Source: a virus. Taken from it: a stretch of 32,323 nucleotides of DNA. The translations under genes and the position numbers were made by a program. The notes beneath the pieces are model-generated. The model saw only the letters and a list, made by a program, of their open reading frames with translations. It made no database searches and was not told where the DNA came from. The stretch spans positions 1-32,323 of the IMG/VR virus record IMGVR_UViG_3300042520_001094. One strand, written 5' to 3'. Positions 6,078 through 17,951 of this stretch are shown here, in pieces. Positions within the stretch are counted from its first letter, which is position 1, and the number at the start of each line of letters is the position of its first letter.

Positions 6078-6728
6078 TTAAAATAAACTTAATTGGCTTG
6101 TTTCTAGTTTTATACGCTTTACAGCACTTTCAAAATACTCTTTATCCAATTCACAAGCTGTTAACTCAAAACCTAAACGGTTACACGCTATTGCTATACT
6201 TCCCGAACCTAAATGAGTATCAAGTATTTTGTCGCCCTCTTTGGCGTAATTCATCAAAAGCCATTCGTATAATTTAACTGGTTTTTGGGTTGGGTGGATG
6301 CGGTTTGGTTGATTTGGATTTTTATCAAATTTTTTAGCACTTGATTTAAATGAAGTCCACGCTAATTCAAACTGTGCAAAAGTAACATCTTCTGAAAAAC
6401 CTTTATCCCATAATAACCAACACGATGAAACTATATCTAAACCTGCAGAAGCCATTTTTTGAACCATGTAATTTCCACCCCAAACAATTTGATTTTTAGA
6501 TATTCTAAATAATTCTTTAAAATATTCTATATTTGGCGTTTCACTATCATTCCCAGCAAATTTATGATAAGGGCTTTTTTTATCTCCTTTTCTCCTACCC
6601 ATGTTTATATTAATATTTATCCCATAAGGCGGGTCAACAATAGCCAAATCAAAATATTTATCGGGATAACGTGCCATTAGTACCATGTTATCCTCATTCG
6701 TTATTTGTATTCTTTCTGTTACATTCAT
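6078..6728 (-). CDS. DNA N6-adenine-type methyltransferase with C-terminal clamp-binding motif
   Basis: This 216-aa beta-class amino-methyltransferase has its catalytic motif DPPYG at 32-36 and the S-adenosylmethionine motif late, as DTHLGSGS at 170-177 (the usual Phe or Pro is His here). IHPTQKPVKLYEWLL between them is the family's conserved linker. The last five residues are QLSLF, the textbook beta-sliding-clamp-binding pentamer, preceded by a charged helix. It would modify phage DNA, probably in step with replication. Target base and sequence are not readable. It is one of three methyltransferases here, and its start overlaps the DnaA-like gene by 4 bases. Confidence 0.9.
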   Translation of the reverse strand: MNVTERIQITNEDNMVLMARYPDKYFDLAIVDPPYGINININMGRRKGDKKSPYHKFAGNDSETPNIEYFKELFRISKNQIVWGGNYMVQKMASAGLDIVSSCWLLWDKGFSEDVTFAQFELAWTSFKSSAKKFDKNPNQPNRIHPTQKPVKLYEWLLMNYAKEGDKILDTHLGSGSIAIACNRLGFELTACELDKEYFESAVKRIKLETSQLSLF

Positions 6729-8742: not shown

Positions 8743-9516
8743 CTAAAAACCGCATCGCTGACAGGCAATCTGATAATATTTTGGTTCTTTTTCGATACCG
8801 ATAAATTTACGGTTAAGATTTTTAGAAGCTACCAATGTACTTCCGCTACCCATTGTAAAATCCAATACAGTTTCATTTTCTTTTGTATATGTTTTAATCA
8901 GGTATTCCATAAGTTCAACTGGCTTTTGCGTTGGGTGTTGTTTACCTTTATTATTAGCATTGCTAAAAGTAATAAGTGTTTTTGGGTATTTTTCATCATA
9001 ATTTCTTAATACTCCATCATTATACTTTACACTTGCACTATCACTACTTGCATATATTTTACCTGTTCTTGGTTTTTGTGCTTCCATTATTGGGTAGTAA
9101 TTATGCTTATTTAAAGCAAAAACACTTATATTTTCGGTATCCCCTAATGGTCTATATTTAGCAACTGCAAAAGCACCAGGTTTTATTTTATTCCAAGTCC
9201 AGTCATACTTATAGTTTTTAATGTTGCTCATTCTTAAAGCACTTGAAAATGGCTCACTTCCAAATAAAACAATAGCCCCATTGGGTTTTATAATCCTGTT
9301 TAGTTGTTCCCACATTTTATCAAAAGGAATTACACTGTCCCACTTACAAGCCGTTGTTCCGTAAGGTGGGTCAGTAATTACACAATCAATACTATTATCA
9401 GGTATCAAAGGCATAATATCTAAGCAATCACCTTGAAATAAAGCACTACCGCTAACATCGGCTATATGCAATAGCGGTTTCGGTGCGTTCTTTAACATTT
9501 GTTCTACTACCATCAT
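8743..9516 (-). CDS. DNA methyltransferase, beta-class (DPPY)
   Basis: This 257-aa amino-methyltransferase has DPPYG at 49-53 and the cofactor motif DFTMGSGST at 219-227, with QHPTQKPVELMEYLI between them, so the catalytic motif comes before the cofactor motif. DPPY favours N6-adenine over N4-cytosine but does not prove it. The start is either of two adjacent ATGs (9516 or 9513). It follows the small HTH regulator by 57 bases. Its sequence is clearly different from the other two methyltransferases, so a different target is likely. Confidence 0.9.
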   Translation of the reverse strand: MMVVEQMLKNAPKPLLHIADVSGSALFQGDCLDIMPLIPDNSIDCVITDPPYGTTACKWDSVIPFDKMWEQLNRIIKPNGAIVLFGSEPFSSALRMSNIKNYKYDWTWNKIKPGAFAVAKYRPLGDTENISVFALNKHNYYPIMEAQKPRTGKIYASSDSASVKYNDGVLRNYDEKYPKTLITFSNANNKGKQHPTQKPVELMEYLIKTYTKENETVLDFTMGSGSTLVASKNLNRKFIGIEKEPKYYQIACQRCGF

Positions 9517-9776: not shown

Positions 9777-10100
9777 TTAAAATGGTAGGTCATTAGTTGG
9801 TTCAGGTGTTGGCGTTGGATTTGTAACATCTCCAAAATTAATTTTCCACGCTTCAATAGTATTGAAATACTTATCGTTACCGTCTTTATCAGTCCACTTG
9901 CGCCCTCTAAGGTTAATACTCGCGGTAACTTCTTGACCTAGTACCAACTTATCTAATATTCCGCAACGCTCGTTGGTTGCTTGAATTAAGATTTGTTGCG
10001 GGTACTGTTCCGCTGTTTCCAATACAAATTCACGTTTTGCAAATTTGTCGCTTACTTGTTGTTTTGCGCCTATAAAGGCTACTTTTCCTTTGACTTCCAT
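9777..10100 (-). CDS. DUF3127-like single-stranded-DNA-binding protein
   Basis: This 107-aa protein reads as a small OB-fold: VKGKVAFIGAKQQVSDKFAKREFVLET at the start, a central QEVTASINLRGRKWTDKDGN, and WKINF before a Pro/Thr-rich linker. It ends NDLPF, very like the acidic DDDIPF tip by which bacterial SSB recruits partner proteins. DUF3127 proteins are mostly found in Bacteroidota and their phages. It would coat ssDNA for the annealing protein and exonuclease upstream in the same operon. Confidence 0.78.
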   Translation of the reverse strand: MEVKGKVAFIGAKQQVSDKFAKREFVLETAEQYPQQILIQATNERCGILDKLVLGQEVTASINLRGRKWTDKDGNDKYFNTIEAWKINFGDVTNPTPTPEPTNDLPF

Positions 10101-10126
10101 TTTTACTTGTTTTTTAATTGATTAAT
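10098..10126 (-). repeat. Gene-junction direct repeat, copy A
   Basis: This segment spans the last codons of the alpha-CTD-like gene, its stop and the next start. It matches 10379-10407 at 26 of 29 positions. Both copies encode INQLKNK-stop and then a short gap and ATG, so the alpha-CTD-like gene is bracketed by direct repeats. Confidence 0.8.
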
Positions 10127-10381
10127 AATAAAATTGTTTTTTAGCTCTAAAAGTTGAACAAGTCCGCTTTTACCTATATTTCTAATTGTCGTTAAATCTT
10201 CATTAGACCTATTCATTAAATCCTCTAAAGTTAAAATATTTACTCTAACTAAAGCACTAAGAAGCCTTGCATCAATATTTAAATCGGATAAATTAGTGTT
10301 TTTATCTCTAGTTAGCAACTCTTTTTTTACTTCTAATTCTAGAGCTTTTAATTCAAATTTTGTCATTTTTGATAATTCCAT
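10103..10381 (-). CDS. RNA polymerase alpha C-terminal domain-like protein
   Basis: This 92-aa protein resembles a free-standing alpha-CTD. DLNIDARLLSALVRVNILTL (33-52) and DLTTIRNIGKSGLVQL (62-77) line up by eye with the E. coli alpha segments around R265 and N294-S299. Residues equal to R265 (here R39), N294 (N68), G296 (G70) and K297 (K71) are kept; N268, K298 and S299 are changed. The fold is a helix-hairpin-helix type that binds DNA or sigma factors. It lacks the alpha N-terminal domain. It could redirect host RNA polymerase or simply bind DNA. Confidence 0.75.
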   Translation of the reverse strand: MELSKMTKFELKALELEVKKELLTRDKNTNLSDLNIDARLLSALVRVNILTLEDLMNRSNEDLTTIRNIGKSGLVQLLELKNNFIINQLKNK

Positions 10382-10407
10382 GTTTACTTGTTTTTAAGTT
10401 GATTAAT
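10379..10407 (-). repeat. Gene-junction direct repeat, copy B
   Basis: This is the upstream partner of 10098-10126. It covers the end of the exonuclease gene (INQLKNK-stop) and the start of the alpha-CTD-like gene. The mismatches are at positions 4, 18 and 20 of the 29-base alignment. Confidence 0.8.
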
Positions 10408-11025
10408 TAAATTGTTATAATACTCGTTTGCTATTTTATACTGCTCGTACATTTGCGCTTCTATTTCCAAATCTCGTTCGATTGTTACACTCGTTACTCT
10501 TAATGCTGGGTTTATGTGGTCGACCTTATGCAGTGCAACGTCATCGAATTTGGTTAGTAGTTCATCAGGCGTTGAAGTCAGGCAGTAAGTAACTTCTGCT
10601 TTTGGACGGTCAAATAGCATCATATAACCGCGCATTTGCCAGTCGTAGCCACTTTGTTTAACACTTTTCTCGGCTTCTTCGTAAAACGCTGGGAACGTAT
10701 CAAACGACCAACTGCATTTAATATCTATAATCTTATCAGGTGCTAAAATATCACATTCGCCTGTAAGCCATTCGTTTGTTTTACGTACATCGTTTTTGTA
10801 ATAGTCGGTAAAATATACGTTATTTAGCATTTTAATAGCCTTATTTTCGTTCATTATACCTTTGTCCGTGTATTTAGTTGAAACGTTTACGAAAATGCCA
10901 TAAAAGTCCTCTTTTGCCTTTTGCATTAACCACGACTTTGTAGTTTCGCCTAATGGCTCATTTTTGGAGCGTCCCTTTGTCATCAACTTGGATAACTCGG
11001 AGCATCTTACTGTTAGGTTATTCAT
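10384..11025 (-). CDS. YqaJ/lambda-exonuclease-like nuclease
   Basis: This 213-aa protein carries the PD-(D/E)XK nuclease core in its viral-exonuclease form: G..NE..AI at 57-64 with E60, TGECDIL at 88-94 with D92, IIDIKCSWS at 99-107 with D101 and K103, and YDWQMRGYMML at 127-137 with Q130. Such enzymes degrade one strand from double-stranded ends and leave a substrate for an annealing protein, which is encoded two genes upstream. The C-terminus INQLKNK is duplicated at the end of the next gene. Confidence 0.85.
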   Translation of the reverse strand: MNNLTVRCSELSKLMTKGRSKNEPLGETTKSWLMQKAKEDFYGIFVNVSTKYTDKGIMNENKAIKMLNNVYFTDYYKNDVRKTNEWLTGECDILAPDKIIDIKCSWSFDTFPAFYEEAEKSVKQSGYDWQMRGYMMLFDRPKAEVTYCLTSTPDELLTKFDDVALHKVDHINPALRVTSVTIERDLEIEAQMYEQYKIANEYYNNLINQLKNK

Positions 11026-11040
11026 ACTACAAACGTTTTA
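11023..11040 (-). repeat. Gene-junction repeat with 11300-11317, copy A
   Basis: Eighteen bases covering AAA-CGT-TTG-TAG and the next ATG are identical at 11023-11040 and 11300-11317. They bracket the 91-aa gene exactly as the INQLKNK repeats bracket the neighbouring alpha-CTD-like gene. Confidence 0.85.
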
Positions 11041-11302
11041 TTGTGTTTTCTGCTTTTTCTATAATTTTTTTTGCTCTATCAATATCCGCACTTGCTAATT
11101 TTATTAAATAATTTTTAGCTTCTTCATAAGTTAAGAAAAAACAACTTTCGTTATCATTTTTATCATCTATGTTATTTATTTTTTTTATTCTATAAAAGTT
11201 TGAGTAAGTTTTATAAATAAACGTACCGTCAGGATTTACTTTATCAGTTTTTATTTTTTGTATCCCTCTATTATATTGTTGGCAAACTCTATATATTTCC
11301 AT
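11027..11302 (-). CDS. Hypothetical protein between annealing protein and exonuclease
   Basis: Not recognised. The 91-aa protein has a basic N-terminal half with many aromatic residues (IYKTYSNFYRIKKIN), an acidic middle (IDDKNDNES) and a helical C-terminal part ending KRL. It looks more AT-rich than its neighbours, and both of its ends lie in an 18-base direct repeat, which suggests insertion as a unit into the recombination operon. Confidence 0.6.
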   Translation of the reverse strand: MEIYRVCQQYNRGIQKIKTDKVNPDGTFIYKTYSNFYRIKKINNIDDKNDNESCFFLTYEEAKNYLIKLASADIDRAKKIIEKAENTIKRL

Positions 11303-11317
11303 ACTACAAACGTTTTA
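11300..11317 (-). repeat. Gene-junction repeat with 11023-11040, copy B
   Basis: This is the upstream partner of 11023-11040 and is identical over 18 bases. It covers the KRL-stop end of the annealing protein and the start codon of the 91-aa gene. Confidence 0.85.
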
Positions 11318-11831
11318 ATTGTTCATCACTTAACTCAAAACTAGCTGTTAACTTTTCAACTGTATAAGCCCCCTCTTTTATTTTTTCTAAAGCCTTAACA
11401 AACCTTGTTTCGTCTATTTTTGGCTTCGGTGGCTCGTAACCCTCAGGCAAATCTTCTCCAGCGTAAATGTATAAGCCTAAACCATGCAATGCTAAAGCCT
11501 TTGTCGTGCTCCTTTGGATAGCCTTGTTAATATCAAAACTCGTTACTTGGTCTAGTTTAATGCTTTGGTTTCGGTTGTTCATAATCGGCAAGTAGTCGAT
11601 ATGTTCAATATCGCCAATAGTTACGCCTACCTTTACCCAACAAGTATTGCCATCAGTAAAGTAGTTCATGCCTGTTTCGGTTTCGTAAACCTTGCGTTGA
11701 ACATTCGGGTAAAGCTTCTTAACCTCAGCCCACGCCCATGACCAGCTAAGGTAAGTTAAACCTGCTTTTTTTTCTGTTTTGTCGTTAACATTGATACTGT
11801 TCAACGCTTCAAAAATTGTTTTCTTTTCCAT
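11304..11831 (-). CDS. DUF1071 single-strand annealing protein
   Basis: This 175-aa protein matches the DUF1071 pattern of phage annealing proteins: TYLSWSWAWAEVKKLYP (26-42), a beta region with VKVGVTIG, YLPIMNNRNQSI, then SFDINKAIQRSTTKALALHG and LGLYIYAGEDLPE. Such proteins coat and anneal ssDNA during phage recombination. The exonuclease and SSB-like proteins encoded downstream supply its substrate and partner. It has its own promoter (11857-11864) and an AAACAATTAAAAC leader, so the recombination genes can be expressed apart from the helicases. Confidence 0.85.
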   Translation of the reverse strand: MEKKTIFEALNSINVNDKTEKKAGLTYLSWSWAWAEVKKLYPNVQRKVYETETGMNYFTDGNTCWVKVGVTIGDIEHIDYLPIMNNRNQSIKLDQVTSFDINKAIQRSTTKALALHGLGLYIYAGEDLPEGYEPPKPKIDETRFVKALEKIKEGAYTVEKLTASFELSDEQLKRL

Positions 11832-17204: not shown

Positions 17205-17951
17205 TTAAAGGTTTATACGTTTATTAATGATTTGACAATATTCGGAAGATATTTCACTACCTATCCAATTCCGTTTATTTAAAATACTCATTTTAGCTGT
17301 TGTTCCACTTCCCATAAATGGGTCATAAATTAAATCGTTCTCATTACTCCAACTTAAAATATGGTCATTTGCAAGCACTTCTGGAAATACGGCAGGGTGT
17401 TCGCCCTTTTGAGGAGCTATATACCAATAGTTGTTTCTTCTGCTAAATTCTGCACTTGGTTTACGCTTTTCTATTTTGTGTTCACCAGTTACTAATCTCC
17501 TGCCTACTCCACTTTTGTCTTTACCAAAAGAAGCGTTTGGTTTGTCATAAATTAGATTTGTGGTATTTATTTTACCTTTTGAAAATACAAACATATATTC
17601 AAAGTTTTGTGTGTAACACTTATTGCTTCCTACTGCACCACCACCATCTTTAATCCAAATCATTGTGTCGTGCAAATTAAAACCAATCTCTTTGAAGTAT
17701 AATGCTTGTTTAAATGATGTCCCGCTTTCATTACCTTGAACAGTTGCATCCGAAATAACCCAAACTAATACACCACCATCTTTTGTAATTCTAAATAACT
17801 CTTTTGCAATATCTTCAAATGGGAAAGAATATCCGTTGTAAGTTCTCAATCCATCGTAAGGCGGACTTGTTACAGTTAAATCCACAAAACAATCAGGCAT
17901 CTTTGCCATTGTCTCAAGACAATTTTCGTTGTATAATTGATTTATTTCCAT
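17205..17951 (-). CDS. DNA methyltransferase, beta-class (SPPY)
   Basis: This 248-aa amino-methyltransferase has its catalytic motif as TSPPYD (28-33) and the cofactor motif DPFMGSGTT at 210-218, with EHPAVFPEVLANDHILSWS between them. SPPY is commonest in N4-cytosine enzymes but also occurs in N6-adenine ones. It starts inside the end of the 140-aa gene upstream (10-base overlap). It lies in the accessory region between the lysis cassette and the control region, far from the other two methyltransferases. Protection from host restriction is the likely role. Confidence 0.9.
   Translation of the reverse strand: MEINQLYNENCLETMAKMPDCFVDLTVTSPPYDGLRTYNGYSFPFEDIAKELFRITKDGGVLVWVISDATVQGNESGTSFKQALYFKEIGFNLHDTMIWIKDGGGAVGSNKCYTQNFEYMFVFSKGKINTTNLIYDKPNASFGKDKSGVGRRLVTGEHKIEKRKPSAEFSRRNNYWYIAPQKGEHPAVFPEVLANDHILSWSNENDLIYDPFMGSGTTAKMSILNKRNWIGSEISSEYCQIINKRINL

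What the first reader, a model, noticed from the sequence alone, without database searches (positions are those of the whole stretch)
10103..10381. Phage-encoded RNA polymerase alpha-CTD look-alike
A 92-aa gene aligns by eye with the alpha-CTD, keeping the residues equal to R265, N294, G296 and K297 but not N268, K298 or S299. A detached alpha-CTD could occupy UP elements, bind sigma or transcription factors, or tie the phage replication operon to host RNA polymerase. I know of no characterised phage example of this form.
Basis: partly seen in the sequence, partly recalled or inferred. Interest (0 to 1): 0.75.

Follow-up and report, generated by a model that had tools for sequence, protein, structure and literature searches.

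The report
Phage gene resembling polymerase alpha tail
A small phage gene really does encode a free-standing copy of the tail domain of the bacterial RNA polymerase alpha subunit, carried as an optional insert in a recombination gene cluster; similar phage genes are already annotated in databases, but what they do has not been shown.

Summary
Confirmed as a domain, not as a function. The minus-strand 92-aa ORF at 10103-10381 passes the Pfam cut-off for the RNA polymerase alpha C-terminal domain (RNA_pol_A_CTD, 32.4 bits, cut-off 23.8). Generic HHH_5 scores 17.4, below its cut-off of 27. The real sequence scores 28.4 bits against an RpoA-only profile; the best of 5000 shuffles scores 11.0. A model made from an alpha-CTD alignment is closest to solved alpha-CTDs.

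The gene is an optional AT-rich cassette between exonuclease and DUF3127 (SSB-like) genes. Of 12 near relatives covering that junction, 11 lack any insert and one has an unrelated small ORF; a 32-nt direct repeat marks the insertion. No close homologue was found. Looser relatives exist in other phages, detached or fused to sigma region 4 or unknown domains, and some are already annotated.

Best reading: a trans-acting alpha-CTD mimic. Whether it acts in transcription or recombination is untested. New member of a known, uncharacterised kind.

The parts
10103..10381 (-). 92-aa detached alpha-CTD-like gene (GC 24.4%)
   Evidence: ORF; Pfam PF03118 32.4 bits; shuffles; GC
10163..10309 (-). alpha-CTD domain proper (profile positions 9-57 of 67)
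   Evidence: the genome search PF03118 match; hmmscan residues 25-73
10376..10407 (-). direct repeat copy 1: tail of the exonuclease gene plus start codon of the alpha-CTD gene
   Evidence: the repeat finder D1, 91% over 32 nt to copy 2
10095..10126 (-). direct repeat copy 2: last codons (INQLKNK) of the alpha-CTD gene plus start codon of the DUF3127 gene
10384..11025 (-). upstream neighbour: exonuclease (phrog_5715)
9777..10100 (-). downstream neighbour: DUF3127, annotated single-strand DNA binding protein (phrog_4932)
11027..11302 (-). orf91, a second optional AT-rich cassette (GC 23.2%) with repeat edges
11304..11831 (-). Sak-type single-strand annealing protein of the same operon

Best explanation
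The gene encodes a free alpha-CTD: an N-terminal helix (residues 8-27) followed by the compact helix-hairpin-helix domain of the bacterial RNA polymerase alpha subunit, without the part that anchors alpha in the enzyme. SHOWN: family identity, absence of the alpha N-terminal domain, presence as an optional cassette. INFERRED: the phage (probably of Flavobacteriia) makes it with its recombination genes; the free domain contacts AT-rich DNA weakly through R39 and the N68-G70-K71 hairpin and/or a partner of the host alpha-CTD (activator or sigma region 4), and so acts in trans as a competitor that shifts host polymerase away from alpha-CTD-dependent host promoters. This would reach by mimicry what phage LUZ19 reaches by Rac-dependent cutting-off of the alpha-CTD.
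For: Profile match and rejection of generic HHH; rpoA models lead NCBIfam; RpoA chains lead PDB by sequence; shuffle control. The model has the alpha-CTD helix order, pLDDT 85.4; the first eight Foldseek hits are RNA polymerase entries and the top VIA match is the B. subtilis alpha-CTD in complex with Spx, Z 10.0, 1.3 A over 64 residues. R265, N294, G296 are kept. In 60 Burkholderiales genomes, matches above the PF03118 cut-off beyond the full-strength one are listed only at five places in G103 and one in G160 (a 337-aa frame), so the cut-off does not ring on ordinary HHH proteins. Other phages carry alpha-CTDs joined to sigma region 4, which points to transcription for the group. Rac precedent: passages of PMC7552054.
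Against: Four of the seven residues of the DNA-contact set (recalled list R265, N268, N294, G296, K298, S299, E302) are changed. The gene sits among recombination genes, not regulators. Foldseek E-values are weak (none under 0.001) and the model rests on an alignment of alpha-CTD relatives, so it leans to that fold; RAD51/Dmc1 HHH domains come close at Z 8.6. The single-sequence model was poor (pLDDT 66.9, merged helices). No close homologue exists in what I searched, so selection on the gene could not be measured. No expression, binding or polymerase data.
Confidence: 0.4

Rival explanations
1. A small DNA-binding helper of the recombination module: the HHH domain is reused to hold DNA ends or single-strand junctions for the neighbouring exonuclease, Sak annealing protein and SSB, with no role in transcription.
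For: Genes on both sides are exonuclease and DUF3127/SSB, with Sak a little upstream; RAD51/Dmc1 HHH domains are close structural matches (Z 8.6).
Against: The sequence prefers alpha-CTD over every HHH model in Pfam; the gene is missing from all 35 loci found that cover the exonuclease/DUF3127 junction, so the module works without it.
Confidence: 0.25
2. A passenger cassette: an AT-rich moron-type gene dropped into a tolerant slot, whose product serves the host or phage elsewhere (for example superinfection control) or does nothing.
For: GC 24.4% against 36.9% and 38.9% in the flanking genes; precise insert with duplicated edges; orf91 shows the same pattern and L002 has another small ORF in the same slot.
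Against: The ORF is intact, in register with the operon and keeps the fold; this rival does not exclude a transcriptional role.
Confidence: 0.2
3. A decoy against host defence proteins that use an alpha-CTD-like domain, such as PglW of BREX.
For: Weak matches to PglW models: padloc E 0.001, 15 bits; NCBIfam E 0.0043.
Against: The score is far below the NCBIfam cut-off (14.8 against 990 bits) and below the alpha-CTD match; a shared domain alone explains it.
Confidence: 0.05
4. A generic helix-hairpin-helix protein whose likeness to the alpha-CTD is convergent.
For: HHH_5 gives 17.4 bits, E 0.0064; HHH-type folds are structural neighbours.
Against: Below the HHH_5 cut-off while above the alpha-CTD cut-off; 28.4 bits against a pure RpoA profile.
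Confidence: 0.07

Closest known systems
C-terminal domain of RNA polymerase alpha (RpoA; Pfam PF03118)
   Same: Profile match over residues 25-73, same helix order, R265/N294/G296/K297 kept
   Different: No alpha N-terminal domain; N268, K298, S299, E302 changed; extra N-terminal helix
Phage proteins annotated as RNA polymerase alpha C-terminal domain (Erythrobacter phage vB_EliS-L02 ORF 40; Bacillus phage Goe8 c00050; Mycobacterium phage Mithril, Rhodococcus phage Finch and uncultured Caudovirales entries in BFVD)
   Same: Phage-borne alpha-CTD outside a full alpha subunit
   Different: Goe8 is 210 aa with a further N-terminal region; BFVD entries named so are 98-240 aa; none came up as a close sequence relative of the window protein
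Detached 81-96 aa alpha-CTD genes in six IMG/VR contigs (L161-L166)
   Same: Also a small free alpha-CTD above the Pfam cut-off
   Different: Lies beside DUF4494 and dUTPase-like genes; has N for R265 and F for N294
Sigma region 4 plus alpha-CTD phage proteins (L157-L160)
   Same: The third alpha-CTD of L157 is the most similar row of alignment A4 (34%); 44% in the best tblastn segment
   Different: 167-440 aa proteins with a sigma70_r4 domain and one to three alpha-CTDs
LUZ19 Rac (PMC7552054, passages read)
   Same: A phage factor that takes the host alpha-CTD out of play
   Different: A predicted acetyltransferase that leads to cleavage of alpha, not a mimic

Membership tests
PF03118 RNA_pol_A_CTD domain family | Profile score above the curated cut-off | tested here: met
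   32.4 against 23.8 bits; 31.9 bits in the six-frame search
PF03118 RNA_pol_A_CTD domain family | Alpha-CTD helix order and fold | tested here: met
   Model pLDDT 85.4; top matches alpha-CTDs, Z 10.0. Caveat: alignment made of alpha-CTD relatives; the single-sequence model failed
RpoA, RNA polymerase alpha subunit | Alpha N-terminal domain joined to the CTD | tested here: not met
   92-aa protein, only the CTD region of rpoA models matched
UP-element-binding alpha-CTD (function) | Complete DNA-contact set R265, N268, N294, G296, K298, S299, E302 (list recalled) | tested here: not met
   3 of 7 kept; weak or altered DNA binding is not excluded
UP-element-binding alpha-CTD (function) | Binding to AT-rich DNA or to RNA polymerase partners | not testable with these tools
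   Needs protein
Generic HHH proteins (ligase, UvrC, HHH_5) | Score above an HHH family's cut-off | tested here: not met
   HHH_5 17.4 against 27 bits; no other HHH family listed at E up to 1
BREX PglW | Score above the NCBIfam cut-off | tested here: not met
   14.8 against 990 bits

The most novel reading that the evidence does not exclude
Phages repeatedly take over the host alpha-CTD as a free regulatory part: a dominant-negative or redirecting subunit that competes with the polymerase's own alpha-CTDs for upstream DNA, activators or sigma. The window's gene would be the minimal form, and the sigma-region-4 fusions a more elaborate one.
Probability: 0.2. Interest if true: 0.7.

Novelty: new member of a known kind. 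Interest (0 to 1): 0.36.

Why it matters
If free alpha-CTDs act in trans, phages have a very small tool to rewire host promoter choice by mimicry, next to the known modification (T4 Alt/ModA) and cleavage (Rac) of alpha. The catalogue here (free, sigma-fused and other forms in several phage types) makes that testable. If they do not, it shows how readily a DNA-holding domain of RNA polymerase is recycled in recombination operons.

Tried and rejected
Close homologues of the 92-aa protein: none in IMG/VR with peptide patterns (22 stretches, 0 confirmed), none in genome contigs (166 stretches, 0 confirmed), none in plasmids at E 0.01, none among the other loci (141 sequences: L001-L140 and the window; only the window and its own copy L001 matched). 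PHROGs: no family.

Phage-collection hits H1-H7 rejected as phage examples: six of the seven are whole or end-cut rpoA-like frames, i.e. apparent bacterial DNA in fecal 'phage' records; the seventh (L145) is a 258-aa frame with several alpha-CTD-like repeats. The same contamination probably explains many hits.

Single-sequence structure model: low confidence, not used for conclusions. Host assignment through genome contigs: the exonuclease scan brought only five Burkholderiales-type relatives at 37-42%, so no Bacteroidota genome could be used as a centre and the host's own rpoA was not compared. In phages the exonuclease relatives are mostly Acinetobacter phages (80 of 94 records), whereas DUF3127 relatives are mostly Flavobacterium phages (79 of 96); I follow the latter plus the lack of Shine-Dalgarno-like cores (1 of 37 starts). 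BREX decoy: only weak matches. The repeat edges could partly be a shared start-site signal: over 666 pairs of gene starts the alpha-CTD pair ties for the top with an unrelated pair (11831/18364), and the orf91 pair is next.

Full report
WHAT IS THERE. The ORF at 10103-10381 is on the minus strand, ATG to stop, 92 aa. Two bases separate it from the exonuclease gene (10384-11025) and two from the DUF3127 gene (9777-10100). The window is a 32,323-base virus record, searched as G000, with portal, terminase, capsid and tail tape-measure genes.

IS IT AN ALPHA-CTD? Pfam: RNA_pol_A_CTD 32.4 bits (cut-off 23.8), residues 25-73; HHH_5 17.4 bits (cut-off 27); no other HHH family listed at E up to 1. NCBIfam: rpoA models fill the top six places, in their C-terminal region. 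PDB sequences: RpoA chains lead, best E 1.4e-5. Against a profile of nine RpoA CTDs from fetched DNA the protein scores 28.4 bits; the best of 5000 shuffles scores 11.0. As a specificity check, 60 Burkholderiales genomes gave PF03118 matches in 58; beyond the one full-strength match per genome, matches above the cut-off are listed only for G103 (five places) and G160 (one, in a 337-aa frame). So the cut-off does not ring on the ordinary HHH proteins that every genome carries.

STRUCTURE. Alone, the protein gave a poor model (pLDDT 66.9). With a 12-row alignment of the protein and phage alpha-CTDs (A4) the model reached pLDDT 85.4, with helices 8-27, 38-46, 52-56, 60-63 and 70-91. Foldseek has RNA polymerase entries in ranks 1 to 8, though with E-values no better than 5.9e-3. 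VIA-align gives Z 10.0, 1.3 A over 64 residues, for the B. subtilis alpha-CTD, and RNA polymerase entries in ranks 1-11; RAD51/Dmc1 HHH domains follow at 8.6. The alignment was made of alpha-CTD relatives, so this agrees with the sequence result rather than proving it independently.

RESIDUES. In E. coli numbering the protein keeps R265, N294, G296 and K297 and has S, S, G and Q at N268, K298, S299 and E302. The DNA-contact list is recalled, not from a call. Three of seven are kept. For comparison, in the same call L160 and L189 keep all seven and Goe8 has only K298 replaced (by R), whereas L161 has N for R265 and F for N294.

AN OPTIONAL CASSETTE. Of 66 loci found through the exonuclease, 35 cover the exonuclease/DUF3127 junction; 29 have a gap of at most 40 nt, L002 has 257 nt, and five distant ones 138-161 nt. 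None of the other loci has a homologue of the 92-aa protein. Among the 12 near relatives (exonuclease 93-95%) that cover the junction, 11 go straight from exonuclease to DUF3127, and L002 has an unrelated membrane-type ORF. In the window the insert is framed by a 32-nt direct repeat, 91% identical, which holds the last codons of the exonuclease gene, the spacer and the next start codon; as a result the exonuclease and the alpha-CTD protein both end in INQLKNK. The single site in relatives occurs in two variants (CAACTTAAAAAC and CAATTAAAAAAC); the left edge in the window has the first and the right edge the second. GC is 24.4% against 36.9% and 38.9% in the two flanking genes. orf91 (11027-11302, GC 23.2%) shows the same: it is found in 4 of the 11 near relatives in which read the Sak/exonuclease junction (L011 and L012, left out by that script's 93% threshold, lack it too), and its edges share 18 identical bases. 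The repeats may in part reflect a shared start-site pattern, as an unrelated pair of gene starts scores equally high.

OTHER PHAGE ALPHA-CTDs. Scanning whole records with PF03118: 0 of 50 exonuclease relatives and 2 of 50 Sak relatives exceed the cut-off. The two led to six contigs with a free 81-96 aa alpha-CTD (L161-L166), beside DUF4494 and a dUTPase-like ORF (that name is my reading of the sequence). Alignment searches brought L157-L159 (a 414-aa protein with sigma70_r4 and three alpha-CTDs, next to a 167-aa sigma70_r4 plus alpha-CTD protein), L160 (440 aa, sigma70_r4 plus alpha-CTD) and L187-L189 (205-265 aa, unknown N-terminal part plus alpha-CTD). IMG/VR contigs may hold bacterial DNA, so single cases such as L188 and L189 need care. 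Cultured phages with a match above the cut-off: Bacillus phage Goe8 (210 aa, annotated RNA polymerase subunit alpha), Microbacterium phages Mazun and Morrill ('DNA binding protein'), Ruegeria phage vB_RpoS-V16. In BFVD, 10 of the 50 listed matches (78 in all) bear an RNA polymerase alpha name.

PRINT. Nine answered paper searches listed no functional study of a phage-encoded free alpha-CTD in the open-licence library. [quoted passage not shown] PMC7552054 (passages) shows that LUZ19 removes the alpha-CTD from host polymerase through Rac. PMC7824862 (12 of 22 passages) covers jumbo-phage transcription; the shown passages do not mention a phage alpha-CTD.

HOW IT MIGHT WORK. Shown: identity, no alpha NTD, optional cassette. 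Inferred: trans action as a competitor of the host alpha-CTD (about 0.4). The sigma-region-4 fusions in other phages favour transcription for the wider group; the neighbours and the changed contact residues favour a recombination helper (about 0.25) or a passenger (about 0.2). Host: probably Flavobacteriia, from 79 of 96 DUF3127-bearing phage records being Flavobacterium phages and only 1 of 37 starts with a Shine-Dalgarno-like core; that such starts are usual in Bacteroidota is recalled, and exonuclease relatives point elsewhere (80 of 94 Acinetobacter).

VERDICT. A correct and well-spotted observation; a new member of an annotated but uncharacterised kind of phage protein.

Noticed in passing
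window 11027-11302: orf91 is a second optional AT-rich cassette, between Sak and exonuclease, with 18 identical bases at its two edges; present in 4 of 11 near relatives read.
   Followed up: partly
L157 2583-3083 and 3137-4378; same in L158, L159: Large phage contigs (61-259 kb) carry adjacent proteins with sigma70 region 4 plus one and plus three alpha-CTDs.
   Followed up: partly
L187 3554-4168 and L190 1554-2186: Goe8 (Herelleviridae) and a 141-kb contig share by eye a similar N-terminal region of about 140 aa joined to an alpha-CTD.
   Followed up: no
L192 2923-3789: Ruegeria phage vB_RpoS-V16 has an alpha-CTD near the start of a 288-aa protein; the two database versions call it HTH protein and pyrophosphatase.
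   Followed up: no
L170-L174 (genome G103, Comamonas koreensis): Ten non-RpoA alpha-CTD-like matches at E up to 0.1 in one genome, in frames of 93-183 aa; nothing alike in the other Burkholderiales sampled.
   Followed up: partly
L141-L147: Records labelled 'Bacteriophage sp.' from human feces contain what look like bacterial rpoA genes.
   Followed up: yes
window 6078-6728, 8743-9516, 17205-17951: Three DNA methyltransferase genes in one 32-kb phage record.
   Followed up: no
L002 6640-6890: A different small membrane-type ORF sits in the slot that the alpha-CTD gene occupies in the window.
   Followed up: no
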